From the IMG/VR virus record IMGVR_UViG_3300009149_000039, positions 1 through 55,342 of that record: 55,342 nucleotides of DNA; one strand, given 5' to 3'. Both the position numbers and the translations under genes were made by a program. This document shows positions 47,241 to 53,944 of this stretch, piece after piece. Numbering within the stretch: the stretch's first letter is position 1; every line of letters starts with the position of its first letter. The DNA is from a virus. The notes under the pieces are model-generated. The model searched no databases, was not told where the DNA came from, and was given only the letters and a program-made list of their open reading frames with translations.

Positions 47241-47313
47241 TACGATGTGGGGGAGGGGTTACCTCGCCGCCAGCGAAAGGGCGGAGGCACAAGTTCGAAT
47301 CTTGTCATCGTAA
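47241..47313 (+). tRNA. tRNA-like gene without normal anticodon loop
   Basis: Acceptor TACGATG / CATCGTA and T-arm ACAAG-TTCGAAT-CTTGT are perfect, D-stem GGGG/CCTC. The anticodon stem CCGCC/GGCGG closes an 8-base loop AGCGAAAG that has no U33, so no anticodon can be assigned safely. The loop resembles the mini-hairpin inserted in the tRNA-Lys at 46892. Confidence 0.5.
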
Positions 47314-47494
47314 CTATTCGAACACGAAGTGAAAACTGATATAAAAGTTTAATCTAAAGTGTACGGAAAATTTAATTATAACAATAGCAAAGGCGAAAAA
47401 AACCGTGAGCAGAGGAAGGGTCTGACAGGTAATTAAATTGGAACTACATAAGTAAATTAAATGAGTAATTGATGTTAGTAGTTAAGTTAGTAGA
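47314..47494. other. Non-coding gap with AATTTAATTA inverted repeat
   Basis: No ORF over 20 codons seen. AATTTAATTA near 47369 pairs with TAATTAAATT near 47430, enclosing a purine-rich stretch with GAGGAAGGGTCTGACAGG. Probably a structured spacer; identity unknown. Confidence 0.35.
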
Positions 47495-48490: not shown

Positions 48491-48582
48491 AAATAAAATT
48501 AGGAAACAGTTGTTTTTATTAATGTTTTATGTTATATTATGTCGTAAAAGTAGTAAACATTGTCGACAAAAAAGAAAAAAAT

Positions 48583-49017
48583 ATGAAAAAATTATTATGG
48601 TTAGACGATTTTAGGGACCCATTTGATGAAAAATCAAATTGGTTAGCATATAACTCAATACGAATAGAAAAACCATTCGAAATAATATGGGTTAAAAATT
48701 ATGATGAATTTATAGATTGGATAATTAAAAATGGATTACCATACCAAATAAGTTTTGACCACGATTTGGCGGATGAACATTATAGTCCTGATATGTATAA
48801 AACACCAGATGTATATAATAAACATTATGATGATTTTAGAGAAAAAACAGGTATGGATTGTGCAAAATGGTTAATAAGTTATTGTATAAACAATAATGTA
48901 AGTGTTCCTAAATTTACTGTACATAGTGCGAATCCCGTTGGTGGTGAAAATATTCGAGCACTACTTAGTAACTTTATCCGGCATCATCCGGTAATAAATA
49001 ATAAAAATTCTTGTTGA
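48583..49017 (+). CDS. Cyclic-phosphate-processing receiver-like (cREC) protein
   Basis: 144 aa from the ATG at 48583. KKLLWLDDFRDP (Asp pair at 8-9), QISFDHDLADE (58-62) and FTVHSANPVGGENI (111-124) are the conserved blocks of the cREC version of the receiver fold. cREC proteins have been proposed to act on RNA or nucleotide cyclic phosphates in RNA repair. Its place inside a tRNA array, 127 bases from an RNase P RNA, makes a tRNA maintenance role attractive. The biochemical role is inferred. Confidence 0.7.
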   Translation: MKKLLWLDDFRDPFDEKSNWLAYNSIRIEKPFEIIWVKNYDEFIDWIIKNGLPYQISFDHDLADEHYSPDMYKTPDVYNKHYDDFREKTGMDCAKWLISYCINNNVSVPKFTVHSANPVGGENIRALLSNFIRHHPVINNKNSC

Positions 49018-49135: not shown

Positions 49136-49143
49136 CAAAATAT

Positions 49144-49385
49144 ATTGAAATTTCTATCGCTCCACGGAGAGGAAATTCGGGACATCATCGCTTAAGGTAG
49201 AAGATAATATCATTAAAAATGCACGATATCATTTATTATGATATTAAGCAAAAATTGTGATATTATCGTTTGTACTACCGAGGATGCAACACAAAACAGT
49301 TTAGAGGGTGAGCGACTCTATTATAACGAGGTAGTGGCAAGTAGATAAATGATAGAATAATACAGAATCCCGGTTATATTTCAAT
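49144..49385 (+). ncRNA. rnpB: RNase P RNA
   Basis: P1: ATTGAAAT (49144-49151) pairs with ATTTCAAT (49378-49385). P2: CTATC (49154-49158) pairs with GATAG (49351-49355). CR-I: GAGAGGAAATTCGGGAC compares with GAGGAAAGTCCGGGC; CR-V: ACAGAATCCCGGTTAT compares with ACAGAACCCGGCTTAT, and CGGGA/TCCCG forms P4. TAGATAAATGATAG before CR-V matches the bacterial TAGATGAATGA segment. At about 242 bases it is much shorter than host RNase P RNA (usually 350-400), so specificity-domain helices are reduced. It would cut 5' leaders from the surrounding pre-tRNAs, probably with host RnpA. Confidence 0.8.
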
Positions 49386-49393
49386 TTTAATAC

Positions 49394-50225: not shown

Positions 50226-51095
50226 ATGTTAAAAATTGATGAAGGTTTTGATGAAATAATTAAATGTAATTATGAATTATATTCTGTAAAATTATTTGAA
50301 TTAAAAGAATTAGCAAAATCTTGGTATAAAGATATTAATTTTAATGATTTTGATAATAGATTTATTGGTGATAACGATTCGAATAAACTAATTCAAATGA
50401 AAAAAACCGGTATTTTATGTAATTACTTTTTTGCGTATAAAGAAGATAATATTTATCATCTTCTTGATGGGTTTAATCGGTTATTTACTGATTATGGTCA
50501 TATTAATGTTGACACAACTGTTTATTTGAAAGTTTTAGTAGGGGAGTTAAAAGATAATCACTTAATGTCTATTATGTTTATGCTTAATACTTGGAAATTA
50601 CAAACACAAGGAGTTCATTCATTTAGAATTACGAATTTTTTAGATAGGGGGTTTAGATTATTTTTATATAGTAAATTTGATATAAAACTATATGATTACA
50701 CTAACATTGATTATTACGATAGAATAAGAAACGATAAAGATATAGATGTTTTAGAAAAATATTTTATACGTGAAAGAGAATATAGTGATATGTTTAAATA
50801 TGAATTAGATGATTTAGCTATTCTTTTTTACAATAAAAACATAATAAATGATTTTAAAGAAATAATAAAATCAAATGATTATTTAACTGAACCTTTTAAC
50901 AATTATAATAAATTTCTTTATGGATTTATAATGTGGATATCACATAAAAGAATAAAAGGAGATAATTCTGAATATAAATTTCAAACATATTTAAATAAAT
51001 TATATCAGGATAAAAAATTCTTTAAAAAATTACAAGGAATGTCAGGAACAGACAGCACTAGAAAAAATATTTATAAATTCTTTCGTAATTTATAA
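50226..51095 (+). CDS. Hypothetical protein, ParB/DGQHR-like motif
   Basis: 289 aa. IYHLLDGFNRLFTDYG (about 78-93) resembles the D-G-x-x-R motif of ParB-like and DGQHR nuclease-type folds; the remainder is helical, ending GMSGTDSTRKNIYKFF. Family placement is tentative. It stands alone in the RNA island behind a host-type promoter, so it may act early against host DNA or RNA. No catalytic role can be stated. Confidence 0.5.
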   Translation: MLKIDEGFDEIIKCNYELYSVKLFELKELAKSWYKDINFNDFDNRFIGDNDSNKLIQMKKTGILCNYFFAYKEDNIYHLLDGFNRLFTDYGHINVDTTVYLKVLVGELKDNHLMSIMFMLNTWKLQTQGVHSFRITNFLDRGFRLFLYSKFDIKLYDYTNIDYYDRIRNDKDIDVLEKYFIREREYSDMFKYELDDLAILFYNKNIINDFKEIIKSNDYLTEPFNNYNKFLYGFIMWISHKRIKGDNSEYKFQTYLNKLYQDKKFFKKLQGMSGTDSTRKNIYKFFRNL

Positions 51096-52034: not shown

Positions 52035-52138
52035 TACTGTGAAAAAAAAAATAATAACACAATAGGTGGAATAATTTATGCCAAAATTTTATTTCACCAT
52101 ACGGTCCTGTGGCGGACGTTGGAATACGCAACAGACTT

Positions 52139-53095
52139 TAATAAAATACCGTAAAATTCTAATAATCGAACCAGAGGGGGTGTTTTTATGTGTTTTAAGT
52201 TATATTTATACTATATGAAACATAAATATAATAAAGAACAAGTACAAATAGCAGTAAAAAATAGTTTTTCTATTGCCCAAGTTTGTAGAGAATTAAAAAT
52301 ACGACCATCTGGAGGGAATTATGACACCGTAAAAAAATTGTTCAAAAAATGGGATATTAATATTGATCATTTTACTGGACAAGGATGGAATGTTGGTTTA
52401 AAATTTAAACCTTATAAAAAATACGAACTAAAAGATGTATTAATAAAAAACTCTCCATATAGGTCGACATATTCACTTAAAAAACGATTAATAAAGGAGG
52501 GGGTTAAAAAAAGAATGTGTGAAAACTGTTTTAGAGAAACGTGGATTAATAACCCAATCAATTTAGAACTTCATCACATAAATGGTGATAACACCGATCA
52601 TAGACTAGTAAATTTATTACTACTATGTCCAAATTGTCACTCATATACCCCAAATTTTAGAAAAGGTAAGAGTGCTCTTTCTGAAAAGAAAGAAGTAGAA
52701 TACCGTAAATTCAAGGAAACCTTAACACATAATGGTGATGGCAATCTTGAGCCAAGCTTTTTAACAAAAGAAGGTGCAGAGACTAGACACGGTAAATCTA
52801 AATCTAAAGATGAACATATTTGTTTAAATTGTAAAAAAATATTTTATAATAGAAATAAAGAAAGAAAATATTGTTCAACCAAATGTTATAGAGAACATAT
52901 AAAAATTAATATTCCTAAAGTACCTGAGTTAATAAAAAAATTTAAAGAATTAAAAACATTTACAAAGGTTGGGGAATTTTACTCTGTAAGTGATAACGCC
53001 GTAAAAAAATGGTGTAAATCATATGGAATTTTAGACATGATTAAGGAATAGTCCAGACCACAAACAATAATAGTAATGAAAATTATAGTGGTACG
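52139..53095 (+). ncRNA. Group I intron in tRNA-Leu
   Basis: 957 bases. Core elements are recognisable: Q-like GCAATCTTGAGCCAAGC (52741-52757), R-like GGTGCAGAGACTAGACAC (52773-52790) and S-like GGAATAGTCC (53045-53054, pairing with GACTA of R). The intron ends in G (53095), as group I introns do. P1 could not be resolved by eye. Confidence 0.8.
52215..53051 (+). CDS. Intron-encoded HNH homing endonuclease
   Basis: 278 aa from ATG 52215 (ATG 52188 adds nine poor residues). N-terminal helix-turn-helix-like part (FSIAQVCRELKIRPSGGNYD), HNH nuclease core CENCFRETWINNPINLELHH to LLLCPNCHSYTP, then a stretch that is a translation of the intron core (NGDGNLEPSFLTKEGAETRH), and a C-terminal zinc and HTH part (CLNCKKIFYNRNKERKYC). 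So the reading frame crosses the ribozyme core and stops within the S element. It would promote intron homing into intronless tRNA-Leu genes. Confidence 0.85.
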   Translation: MKHKYNKEQVQIAVKNSFSIAQVCRELKIRPSGGNYDTVKKLFKKWDINIDHFTGQGWNVGLKFKPYKKYELKDVLIKNSPYRSTYSLKKRLIKEGVKKRMCENCFRETWINNPINLELHHINGDNTDHRLVNLLLLCPNCHSYTPNFRKGKSALSEKKEVEYRKFKETLTHNGDGNLEPSFLTKEGAETRHGKSKSKDEHICLNCKKIFYNRNKERKYCSTKCYREHIKINIPKVPELIKKFKELKTFTKVGEFYSVSDNAVKKWCKSYGILDMIKE

Positions 53096-53150
53096 AAACC
53101 CTGTTTTTCGCTGGTTCGATTCCAGTCAGGATCACATTATTATAAAAGAA

Positions 53151-53234
53151 AAGTTGCCTTTGTGGTTACCACTACAATCCGCAGTAGTACGGTATTTAGG
53201 GTCATGACGTACCCACACAAAGGGCGGACAACTT
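53151..53234 (+). ncRNA. Compact pseudoknotted RNA, unknown family
   Basis: 84 bases with mutually compatible helices: AAGTTG/CAACTT (53151-56, 53229-34), CCTTTGTG/CACAAAGG (53157-64, 53216-23), TACC/GGTA (53167-70, 53191-94), ACTAC/GTAGT (53171-75, 53184-88) and GGGT/ACCC (53199-202, 53211-14). The apical loop TCCGC (53178-82) pairs perfectly with GCGGA (53224-28). No tRNA or known ribozyme signature fits. It could be a ribozyme, riboswitch or protein-binding RNA. Confidence 0.6.
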
Positions 53235-53246
53235 AAAAAAATATTG

Positions 53247-53311
53247 AGTTAAACAATCTGAAACTTTATTAGGTGTATAATGGTGTATATAAAATGGATG
53301 ACTGTTTAACT
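53247..53311 (+). other. Hairpin before tRNA-Arg(TCT)
   Basis: AGTTAAACA / TGTTTAACT perfect 9-bp stem; the loop holds a near-duplicate GGTGTATAATGGTGTATA. Ends 5 bases before the tRNA. Confidence 0.55.
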
Positions 53312-53316
53312 TTTAT

Positions 53317-53389
53317 GGCCTCATAGCATAATGGATAGTGCGACAGGTTTCTACCCTGTTACGTGGGGGTTCGAGTCCCTCTGGGGTTA
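53317..53389 (+). tRNA. tRNA-Arg(TCT)
   Basis: Acceptor GGCCTCA / TGGGGTT (three G-T pairs), D-stem GCAT/GTGC, anticodon arm ACAGG-TTTCTAC-CCTGT, T-arm GGGGG-TTCGAGT-CCCTC. Confidence 0.82.
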
Positions 53390-53401
53390 CTATTTTAATA
53401 A

Positions 53402-53575: not shown

Positions 53576-53674
53576 GGAGGGATGCATTTTCGCGAAAAGT
53601 GTGTTGGAAAGCAATGTTAGCTGTACACTAACTGTCTTAATAGACTATTGTAGGTTCGACCCCTGCTCCCTCCA
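53576..53674 (+). tRNA. tRNA-Tyr(GTA) with D-loop hairpin insertion
   Basis: Acceptor GGAGGGA / TCCCTCC, anticodon arm GTTAG-CTGTACA-CTAAC, type II variable arm as normal for bacterial Tyr, T-arm GTAGG-TTCGACC-CCTGC. The D-loop holds TTTTCGCGAAAA, a self-complementary mini-hairpin, making the gene 99 bases. Confidence 0.82.
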
Positions 53675-53680
53675 CTAAAT

Positions 53681-53848: not shown

Positions 53849-53869
53849 CGCGGGTAGACTTGGTTCGAG
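53849..53869 (+). pseudogene. Orphan T-arm
   Basis: ACTTGG-TTCGAGT-CCAAG is a perfect tRNA T-arm, but no matching acceptor or anticodon arm lies upstream (another tRNA ends at 53829). Remnant of a tRNA, or half of a rearranged one. Confidence 0.4.
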
Positions 53870-53944
53870 TCCAAGCACAGAAGGTACGAGCCATGGTAAT
53901 TGTACTGAAGTGAAGTGTAAGGGTTGTGCACACCGGCGGTAATA

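What the first reader, a model, noticed from the sequence alone, without database searches (positions are those of the whole stretch)
53151..53234. Unidentified compact RNA with five helices and a perfect 5-bp pseudoknot
Nested stems account for most of the 84 bases and the apical loop TCCGC pairs with GCGGA in the junction. The probability of all these pairings by chance in such a short AT-rich stretch is low. It lies between the intron-bearing tRNA-Leu and tRNA-Arg and is not a tRNA. Candidate new ribozyme, riboswitch, nuclease-resistant element or protein decoy.
Basis: seen in the sequence. Interest (0 to 1): 0.75.

Follow-up and report, generated by a model that had tools for sequence, protein, structure and literature searches.

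The report
Orphan pseudoknotted RNA in phage tRNA array
A virus that infects bacteria carries, between two of its transfer-RNA genes, an 84-base RNA sequence that folds into a compact knotted shape far too tidy to be chance, but it has no detectable relatives, so its job (probably a small stable helper RNA) remains a guess.

Summary
The structure is really there: 53151-53234 (+) has P1 (6 bp), P2 (8 bp), a three-way junction with hairpins H1 (4+5 bp) and H2 (4 bp), and a 5-bp pseudoknot between the H1 loop (TCCGC) and the P2/P1 linker (GCGGA), all Watson-Crick. Shuffles show that this exceeds chance. A Watson-Crick-only version of the architecture occurred in 0 of 300 shuffled windows. An equally good pseudoknot occurred in 3 of 10,000 shuffled 84-mers. 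If G-U pairs and loose lengths are allowed, the bare shape is common (about 0.5 per window strand). P1 is poorly supported by nested folding in flanking context.

Nothing matched: Rfam at E<=10, INPHARED phages and plasmids, four IMG/VR pattern scans, one GTDB-genome scan, and covariance searches of 50 related phage records and 10 related tRNA arrays or records. Covariation, the decisive test, is therefore impossible at present. HDV/theta topology is not met. Twister shares one pseudoknot but lacks the cleavage-site strand.

Related phages keep tRNA-Leu(UAA) and tRNA-Arg(UCU) adjacent with 4-63 nt between them; here 181 nt are inserted. Their inter-tRNA gaps are enriched for helix-closed elements. 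Best reading: a lineage-specific small structured RNA released during tRNA processing, comparable in setting to T4 rnaC/rnaD. Its function is inferred, not shown.

The parts
53151..53234 (+). element A: 84-nt pseudoknotted structured RNA
53151..53156 (+). P1 5' strand AAGTTG (pairs 53229-53234 CAACTT)
   Evidence: sequence; nested probability 0.04-0.63 depending on flanks
53157..53164 (+). P2 5' strand CCTTTGTG (pairs 53216-53223 CACAAAGG), continuous with P1 on the 5' side
   Evidence: 0.75-0.88
53167..53194 (+). H1 hairpin: TACC-ACTAC [AATCCGCA] GTAGT-(AC bulge)-GGTA
   Evidence: 0.96-0.97
53178..53182 (+). pseudoknot 5' strand TCCGC in the H1 loop
53199..53214 (+). H2 hairpin: GGGT [CATGACGT] ACCC
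   Evidence: 0.98-0.99
53224..53228 (+). pseudoknot 3' strand GCGGA, linker between the P2 and P1 3' strands
53096..53135 (+). 3' exon of the upstream tRNA-Leu(UAA), ending about 15 nt before element A
   Evidence: exon join called tRNA-Leu (taa) by ARAGORN
53246..53312 (+). element B: second helix-closed stretch (GAGTTAAACA/TGTTTAACTT, 10 bp) between A and tRNA-Arg
53317..53390 (+). downstream tRNA-Arg(UCU)

Best explanation
Element A is a lineage-specific small structured noncoding RNA carried in the phage's polycistronic tRNA transcript. Shown: the fold is encoded at this place on the tRNA-sense strand beyond chance, between tRNA-Leu(UAA) and tRNA-Arg(UCU), in a gap that related phages keep at 4-63 nt. 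Inferred: tRNA 3'-end processing of Leu, cleavage in the AU-rich linkers (53136-53150, 53235-53245) and 5' processing of Arg release it. The 9-bp H1 folds back along the 8-bp P2 so that its loop locks onto the linker at the P1/P2 boundary, giving a compact RNA with few unpaired bases that resists nucleases and accumulates. Its most likely use is as a stable RNA ligand (binding or decoying a host protein or nuclease), as may be the case for T4 rnaC/rnaD, whose role is also unknown.
For: All 28 ARAGORN tRNAs are on the + strand. The pseudoknot exists only on that strand: the minus strand's MFE has none. Chance is excluded for the strict form. No ORF lies there. The Leu-Arg gap is 4 nt in L114 and L115, 5 nt in L098 and 63 nt in L109, and the L109 gap itself holds a 10-bp helix-closed element. 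Of 34 inter-tRNA gaps of this clade without a T-loop motif, 8 have a closing helix at p<=0.05 where about 1.7 are expected. Two such elements are conserved between L117 and L118. The precedent of small stable RNAs in a phage tRNA cluster is annotated in T4: rnaC 139 nt and rnaD 119 nt.
Against: No homologue, hence no covariation. No transcription data. P1 is weakly predicted in context, and both pseudoknot strands are jointly free in only 6% of the nested ensemble in a 164-nt context. Release, stability and partner are all inferred.
Confidence: 0.45

Rival explanations
1. Structured spacer or processing signal: the long P1-P2 helix (and element B) only separates and insulates tRNA-Leu from tRNA-Arg or is an RNase III-type cut site; the RNA has no further role.
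For: Helix-closed stretches are a general feature of gaps in these arrays and their sequences are mostly not shared between phages, as expected of spacers.
Against: The homologous Leu-Arg gap is 4-5 nt in three relatives, so no such spacer is needed. A 5-bp GC-rich pseudoknot is not needed for a spacer; no other gap element showed one with at least 4 GC pairs.
Confidence: 0.25
2. Self-cleaving ribozyme that helps to mature the flanking tRNAs, as theta ribozymes do.
For: Compact pseudoknotted RNA directly 3' of a phage tRNA; theta ribozymes (PMC10879173) are a precedent for ribozymes at phage tRNA 3' ends. The H1-loop/linker pairing has the connectivity of twister pseudoknot T1 (PMC5408937).
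Against: HDV topology is no better than shuffles. The start lies 15 nt from the tRNA 3' end, outside the +/-5 nt of theta ribozymes. There is no L1 5' strand and no U-A site for twister. There is no Rfam ribozyme hit at E<=10. Very few unpaired bases remain to build an active site.
Confidence: 0.07
3. Barrier to exonucleases (works like an xrRNA) protecting upstream tRNA-Leu or a processing intermediate.
For: Three-way junction plus a loop-to-downstream pseudoknot next to the basal helix, as in flaviviral xrRNAs (PMC5760640).
Against: The pseudoknot loop is in the 5' hairpin, not the 3' one; the 5'-end/junction contact and the ring are not identified; xrRNAs oppose 5'-3' decay.
Confidence: 0.06
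4. DNA-level element (remnant of a small insertion or recombination site) whose imperfect inverted repeat merely looks like an RNA fold.
For: It sits in a segment absent from the same Leu-Arg gap of relatives; P1/P2 form an inverted repeat.
Against: Single copy in the window and no copy in 160 related loci; an inverted repeat does not explain the loop-linker pseudoknot.
Confidence: 0.07
5. Fortuitous structure without function.
For: With G-U pairs and flexible sizes the shape occurs by chance about 0.5 times per window strand; nested z is only -2; no homologues.
Against: Strict Watson-Crick version 0/300 shuffled windows; pseudoknot 3/10,000 and 0/10,000 together with the energy; position in a tRNA array rather than in coding DNA.
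Confidence: 0.1

Closest known systems
T4 rnaC and rnaD (species 1 and 2 small stable RNAs of the T4 tRNA cluster)
   Same: Small non-tRNA RNA genes inside a phage tRNA cluster, next to tRNA-Arg; function unknown (general knowledge)
   Different: 139 and 119 nt; no match to the element A model in the T4 cluster; rnaC has a tRNA-like T arm; no comparable loop-linker pseudoknot. T4 RNAs are annotated as stable; element A is only predicted
Theta ribozymes (HDV-like, PMC10879173)
   Same: Pseudoknotted RNA just downstream of a phage tRNA
   Different: HDV connectivity not found; 15 nt from the tRNA end instead of within 5 nt
Twister ribozyme (PMC5408937)
   Same: P1-L1-P2 order with the apical loop paired to the 3' strand of L1 (like T1) and an optional side hairpin
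   Different: No 5' strand of L1, so no U-A cleavage site; no T2 identified; no Rfam match
Flaviviral xrRNA (PMC5760640)
   Same: Three-way junction, loop paired with sequence just downstream of the basal helix
   Different: The loop belongs to the 5' rather than the 3' hairpin; no ring contacts identified; eukaryotic-virus family

Membership tests
Any Rfam 15 family (includes tRNA, tmRNA and the small ribozyme and riboswitch models) | match to the family covariance model | tested here: not met
   53120-53270, both strands, 4227 models, E<=10: no match
HDV-like / theta ribozyme | nested double pseudoknot P1 x P2 with P3 between | tested here: not met
   best descriptor score in 53131-53320 is 16, below most shuffles
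HDV-like / theta ribozyme | cleavage site within +/-5 nt of the tRNA 3' end | tested here: not met
   tRNA-Leu ends ~53135, element starts 53151; criterion
Twister | apical loop L4 pairs with internal loop L1 (T1) | tested here: met
   TCCGC/GCGGA connectivity
Twister | L1 5' strand with the U-A cleavage site and conserved L1/L4 nucleotides | tested here: not met
   P1 and P2 are continuous on the 5' strand; no Rfam hit; features
Hammerhead | CUGANGA and GAA core | tested here: not met
   no GAA in 53151-53234
T4 rnaC/rnaD-like tRNA-cluster RNAs | non-tRNA structured RNA encoded within a phage tRNA cluster, same strand | tested here: met
T4 rnaC/rnaD-like tRNA-cluster RNAs | accumulates as a discrete stable RNA | not testable with these tools
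   needs RNA from infected cells
T4 rnaC/rnaD-like tRNA-cluster RNAs | homology to rnaC/rnaD | tested here: not met
   model R1, filters off, no match in L271 at E<=3
xrRNA | loop of the 3' hairpin pairs downstream; ring around the 5' end | tested here: not met
   the pseudoknot loop is in the 5' hairpin; the ring is not testable here
tRNA | cloverleaf with T loop | tested here: not met
   no ARAGORN or Rfam tRNA call

The most novel reading that the evidence does not exclude
Element A is the first seen member of a new RNA class with its own activity (a new self-cleaving or protein-binding counter-defence RNA) carried in tRNA arrays of a large phage clade.
Probability: 0.1. Interest if true: 0.7.

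Novelty: new member of a known kind. Interest (0 to 1): 0.38.

Why it matters
Phage tRNA clusters have long been known to hold small stable RNAs without a known role. A compact, well-defined example in a phage that also seems to carry its own RNase P RNA, together with evidence that helix-closed elements are enriched in the tRNA gaps of its relatives, gives a concrete and cheap target (in-vitro transcript, probing, cleavage assay) for asking what such RNAs do. Without homologues the functional claim stays weak.

Tried and rejected
Known families: Rfam at E<=10, none.

Sequence homologues: blastn in INPHARED phages and PLSDB plasmids gave only chance-level pieces, the best at E 0.06 inside a Vibrio phage hypothetical-protein gene. 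Four IMG/VR patterns were scanned: the H1 hairpin (0 hits); loop plus linker (22 hits, 20 with no trace of the fold and 2 with only a loose partial one); loop with a free stem (6 hits, none convincing); P1/P2 arms (7 hits, none near a tRNA, none with the fold). One GTDB-genome pattern scan gave 78 hits, none convincing.

Structure homologues: a single-sequence covariance model found nothing better than E 0.78 in 50 related phage records and nothing convincing with filters off in nine related phage loci plus the T4 cluster (best E 0.07, outside the tRNA arrays). A pseudoknot descriptor in relatives' arrays gave only chance hits.

Neighbouring proteins as bait: the ORF at 50226-51095 found no relatives and the cREC protein found one distant, uninformative locus.

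Minus strand as the functional one: its nested fold is slightly stronger (-27.2) but no pseudoknot forms in its MFE and every tRNA is on the plus strand.

Intrinsic terminator: no U run follows it on the plus strand.

An 8-nt complement between the intron end (TAGTGGTA, 53082-53089) and H1 (TACCACTA) was noticed but is within chance for that distance; not pursued.

Full report
What is there. The + strand at 53151-53234 reads AAGTTG-CCTTTGTG-GT-TACC-ACTAC-AATCCGCA-GTAGT-AC-GGTA-TTTA-GGGT-CATGACGT-ACCC-A-CACAAAGG-GCGGA-CAACTT. P1 (6 bp) and P2 (8 bp) are continuous on the 5' strand. On the 3' strand they are separated by GCGGA, which is the exact complement of TCCGC in the loop of hairpin H1. 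P2 ends in a three-way junction from which H1 (4+5 bp with a 3' AC bulge) and H2 (4 bp, 8-nt loop) emerge. All 32 pairs are Watson-Crick.

Is it more than chance? Nested folding alone is unimpressive: -24.7 kcal/mol, z -2.05, reached by 4.4% of shuffles. A descriptor that allows G-U pairs and flexible sizes finds an equally long match 0.5 times per shuffled window strand, so the topology by itself is not rare. With Watson-Crick pairs only, it was met at the observed length in 0 of 300 shuffled windows and 0 of 1,500 shuffled array regions. Without presupposing the topology, 3 of 10,000 shuffles of the 84-mer have a pseudoknot of at least 5 bp with at least 4 G-C pairs in their minimum-energy fold, and none combines this with the observed energy. 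The descriptor was written after seeing the sequence, so these numbers are somewhat optimistic, but chance is unlikely. The weakest parts are P1 and the pseudoknot in context. With flanks, the nested ensemble gives P1 0.04-0.63, P2 0.75-0.88 and H1/H2 0.96-0.99, and both pseudoknot strands are free together in 48% of the ensemble of the 84-mer but 6% in a 164-nt context.

Strand and surroundings. All 28 ARAGORN tRNAs lie on the + strand. The reverse complement has no such pseudoknot in its minimum-energy fold. No ORF of 60 aa or more covers the element. Upstream, joining 52104-52138 with 53096-53138 gives a tRNA-Leu with anticodon TAA. The interruption therefore falls between U34 and A35, the site used by the classical tRNA-Leu(UAA) group I intron (site from general knowledge), and it carries an ORF at 52188-53051. 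The tRNA ends near 53135, about 15 nt before element A. Downstream, 11 nt after A, comes a second helix-closed stretch B (53246-53312, 10-bp closing helix), then tRNA-Arg(UCU) at 53317.

Relatives. The window is a 55-kb virus record with phage head-and-packaging proteins and a ClpA-like gene. Major capsid and ClpA searches brought 160 loci of related phages, about a dozen of which have two or more tRNAs beside the ClpA-like gene. tRNA-Leu(UAA) is followed by tRNA-Arg(UCU) after 4 nt (L114, L115), 5 nt (L098) or 63 nt (L109). Here the gap is 181 nt. Element A is therefore a lineage-specific addition and not a conserved processing signal. The 63-nt gap of L109 holds its own 10-bp helix-closed element. 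Among 34 inter-tRNA gaps of the window and 12 relatives that contain no T-loop motif, 8 have a closing helix at p<=0.05 against about 1.7 expected. Two elements of this sort are conserved between L117 and L118, at 88% and 76% identity. None of the elements examined shows the loop-linker pseudoknot of A with at least 4 G-C pairs.

Search for homologues. Nothing credible came from Rfam, INPHARED or PLSDB, IMG/VR patterns, GTDB genomes, a covariance model run on 50 related phage records or the same model with filters off on nine related loci and the T4 cluster. Element A is an orphan in what could be searched; near-identical records may have been withheld by the tools.

How it most likely works. 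Shown: the encoded fold, the strand and the position. Inferred: it is co-transcribed with the tRNAs and freed by tRNA end processing and cleavage in the AU-rich linkers. H1 (9 bp) is long enough to lie back along P2 (8 bp) and place its loop at the P1/P2 boundary, so the pseudoknot is sterically plausible. Only about 20 bases remain unpaired, which suits a stable ligand or scaffold better than a catalyst or a metabolite sensor. The best precedent is T4, whose tRNA cluster carries rnaC (139 nt) and rnaD (119 nt), annotated as small stable RNAs. A decoy for a host nuclease is attractive because tRNA-cleaving defences act against phages that carry tRNAs (for example PMC10264068 and PMC11555353, found), but nothing here tests it.

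Comparison with known kinds. Theta ribozymes are the obvious analogue, being HDV-like ribozymes at phage tRNA 3' ends (PMC10879173). The HDV topology is not found and the distance to the tRNA is too large. Twister shares the T1-type connectivity but needs a U-A cleavage site in the 5' strand of L1, and element A has no 5' strand there. Flaviviral xrRNAs pair the loop of the other hairpin. No membership is claimed. 'Works like a stable phage tRNA-cluster RNA' is the most that the evidence allows.

Verdict. The interest is moderate, because the fold is real and odd but orphaned.

Noticed in passing
window 49141-49392 (+): Probable phage-encoded RNase P RNA just upstream of tRNA-Trp: RF00010, full model 1-367, 45.2 bits (gathering 100), E 4e-13, with the core motifs GAGGAAA and ACAGAA..CC.GUUA. 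Not found in the related arrays of L114, L123 and L125 at E<=0.5; L086, L117, L118 and L135 were scanned only at gathering threshold.
   Followed up: partly
window 52104-53135: tRNA-Leu(UAA) interrupted between U34 and A35 by ~957 nt with an HNH-like ORF (52188-53051; no Pfam match); joining 52138|53096 restores a tRNA-Leu call. Probably a group I intron at the classical tRNA-Leu(UAA) site, in a phage.
   Followed up: partly
window 53246-53312 (+): Second helix-closed element (GAGTTAAACA/TGTTTAACTT) directly upstream of tRNA-Arg.
   Followed up: partly
window 47241-47314 (+): ARAGORN reports a tRNA with a four-base anticodon ('cgaa', enlarged anticodon loop), a possible frameshift-suppressor-type tRNA.
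   Followed up: no
L117 16971-17045 with L118 15455-15529; L117 17240-17320 with L118 15680-15770: Two conserved helix-closed non-tRNA elements between tRNA genes of related phages (88% and 76% identity), usable for a covariation test of this class.
   Followed up: partly
L114 11672-11813: 142-nt gap between tRNA-Arg and tRNA-Pro closed by a 9-bp helix (AAGATAGTG/CACTATCTT) with several internal hairpins, MFE -42 kcal/mol; another candidate structured RNA.
   Followed up: partly
window 53577-53677 and 53850-53877: A probable tRNA-Ser(GCU) missed by ARAGORN, and an isolated T-arm-like hairpin (CTTGGTTCGAGTCCAAG) in the gap before tRNA-Leu(UAG).
   Followed up: no
window 48529-49017 (+): Protein with a cREC_REC domain (PF20274, cyclic-phosphate processing receiver) inside the tRNA array; only one distant viral relative (L164, 32% identity).
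   Followed up: no
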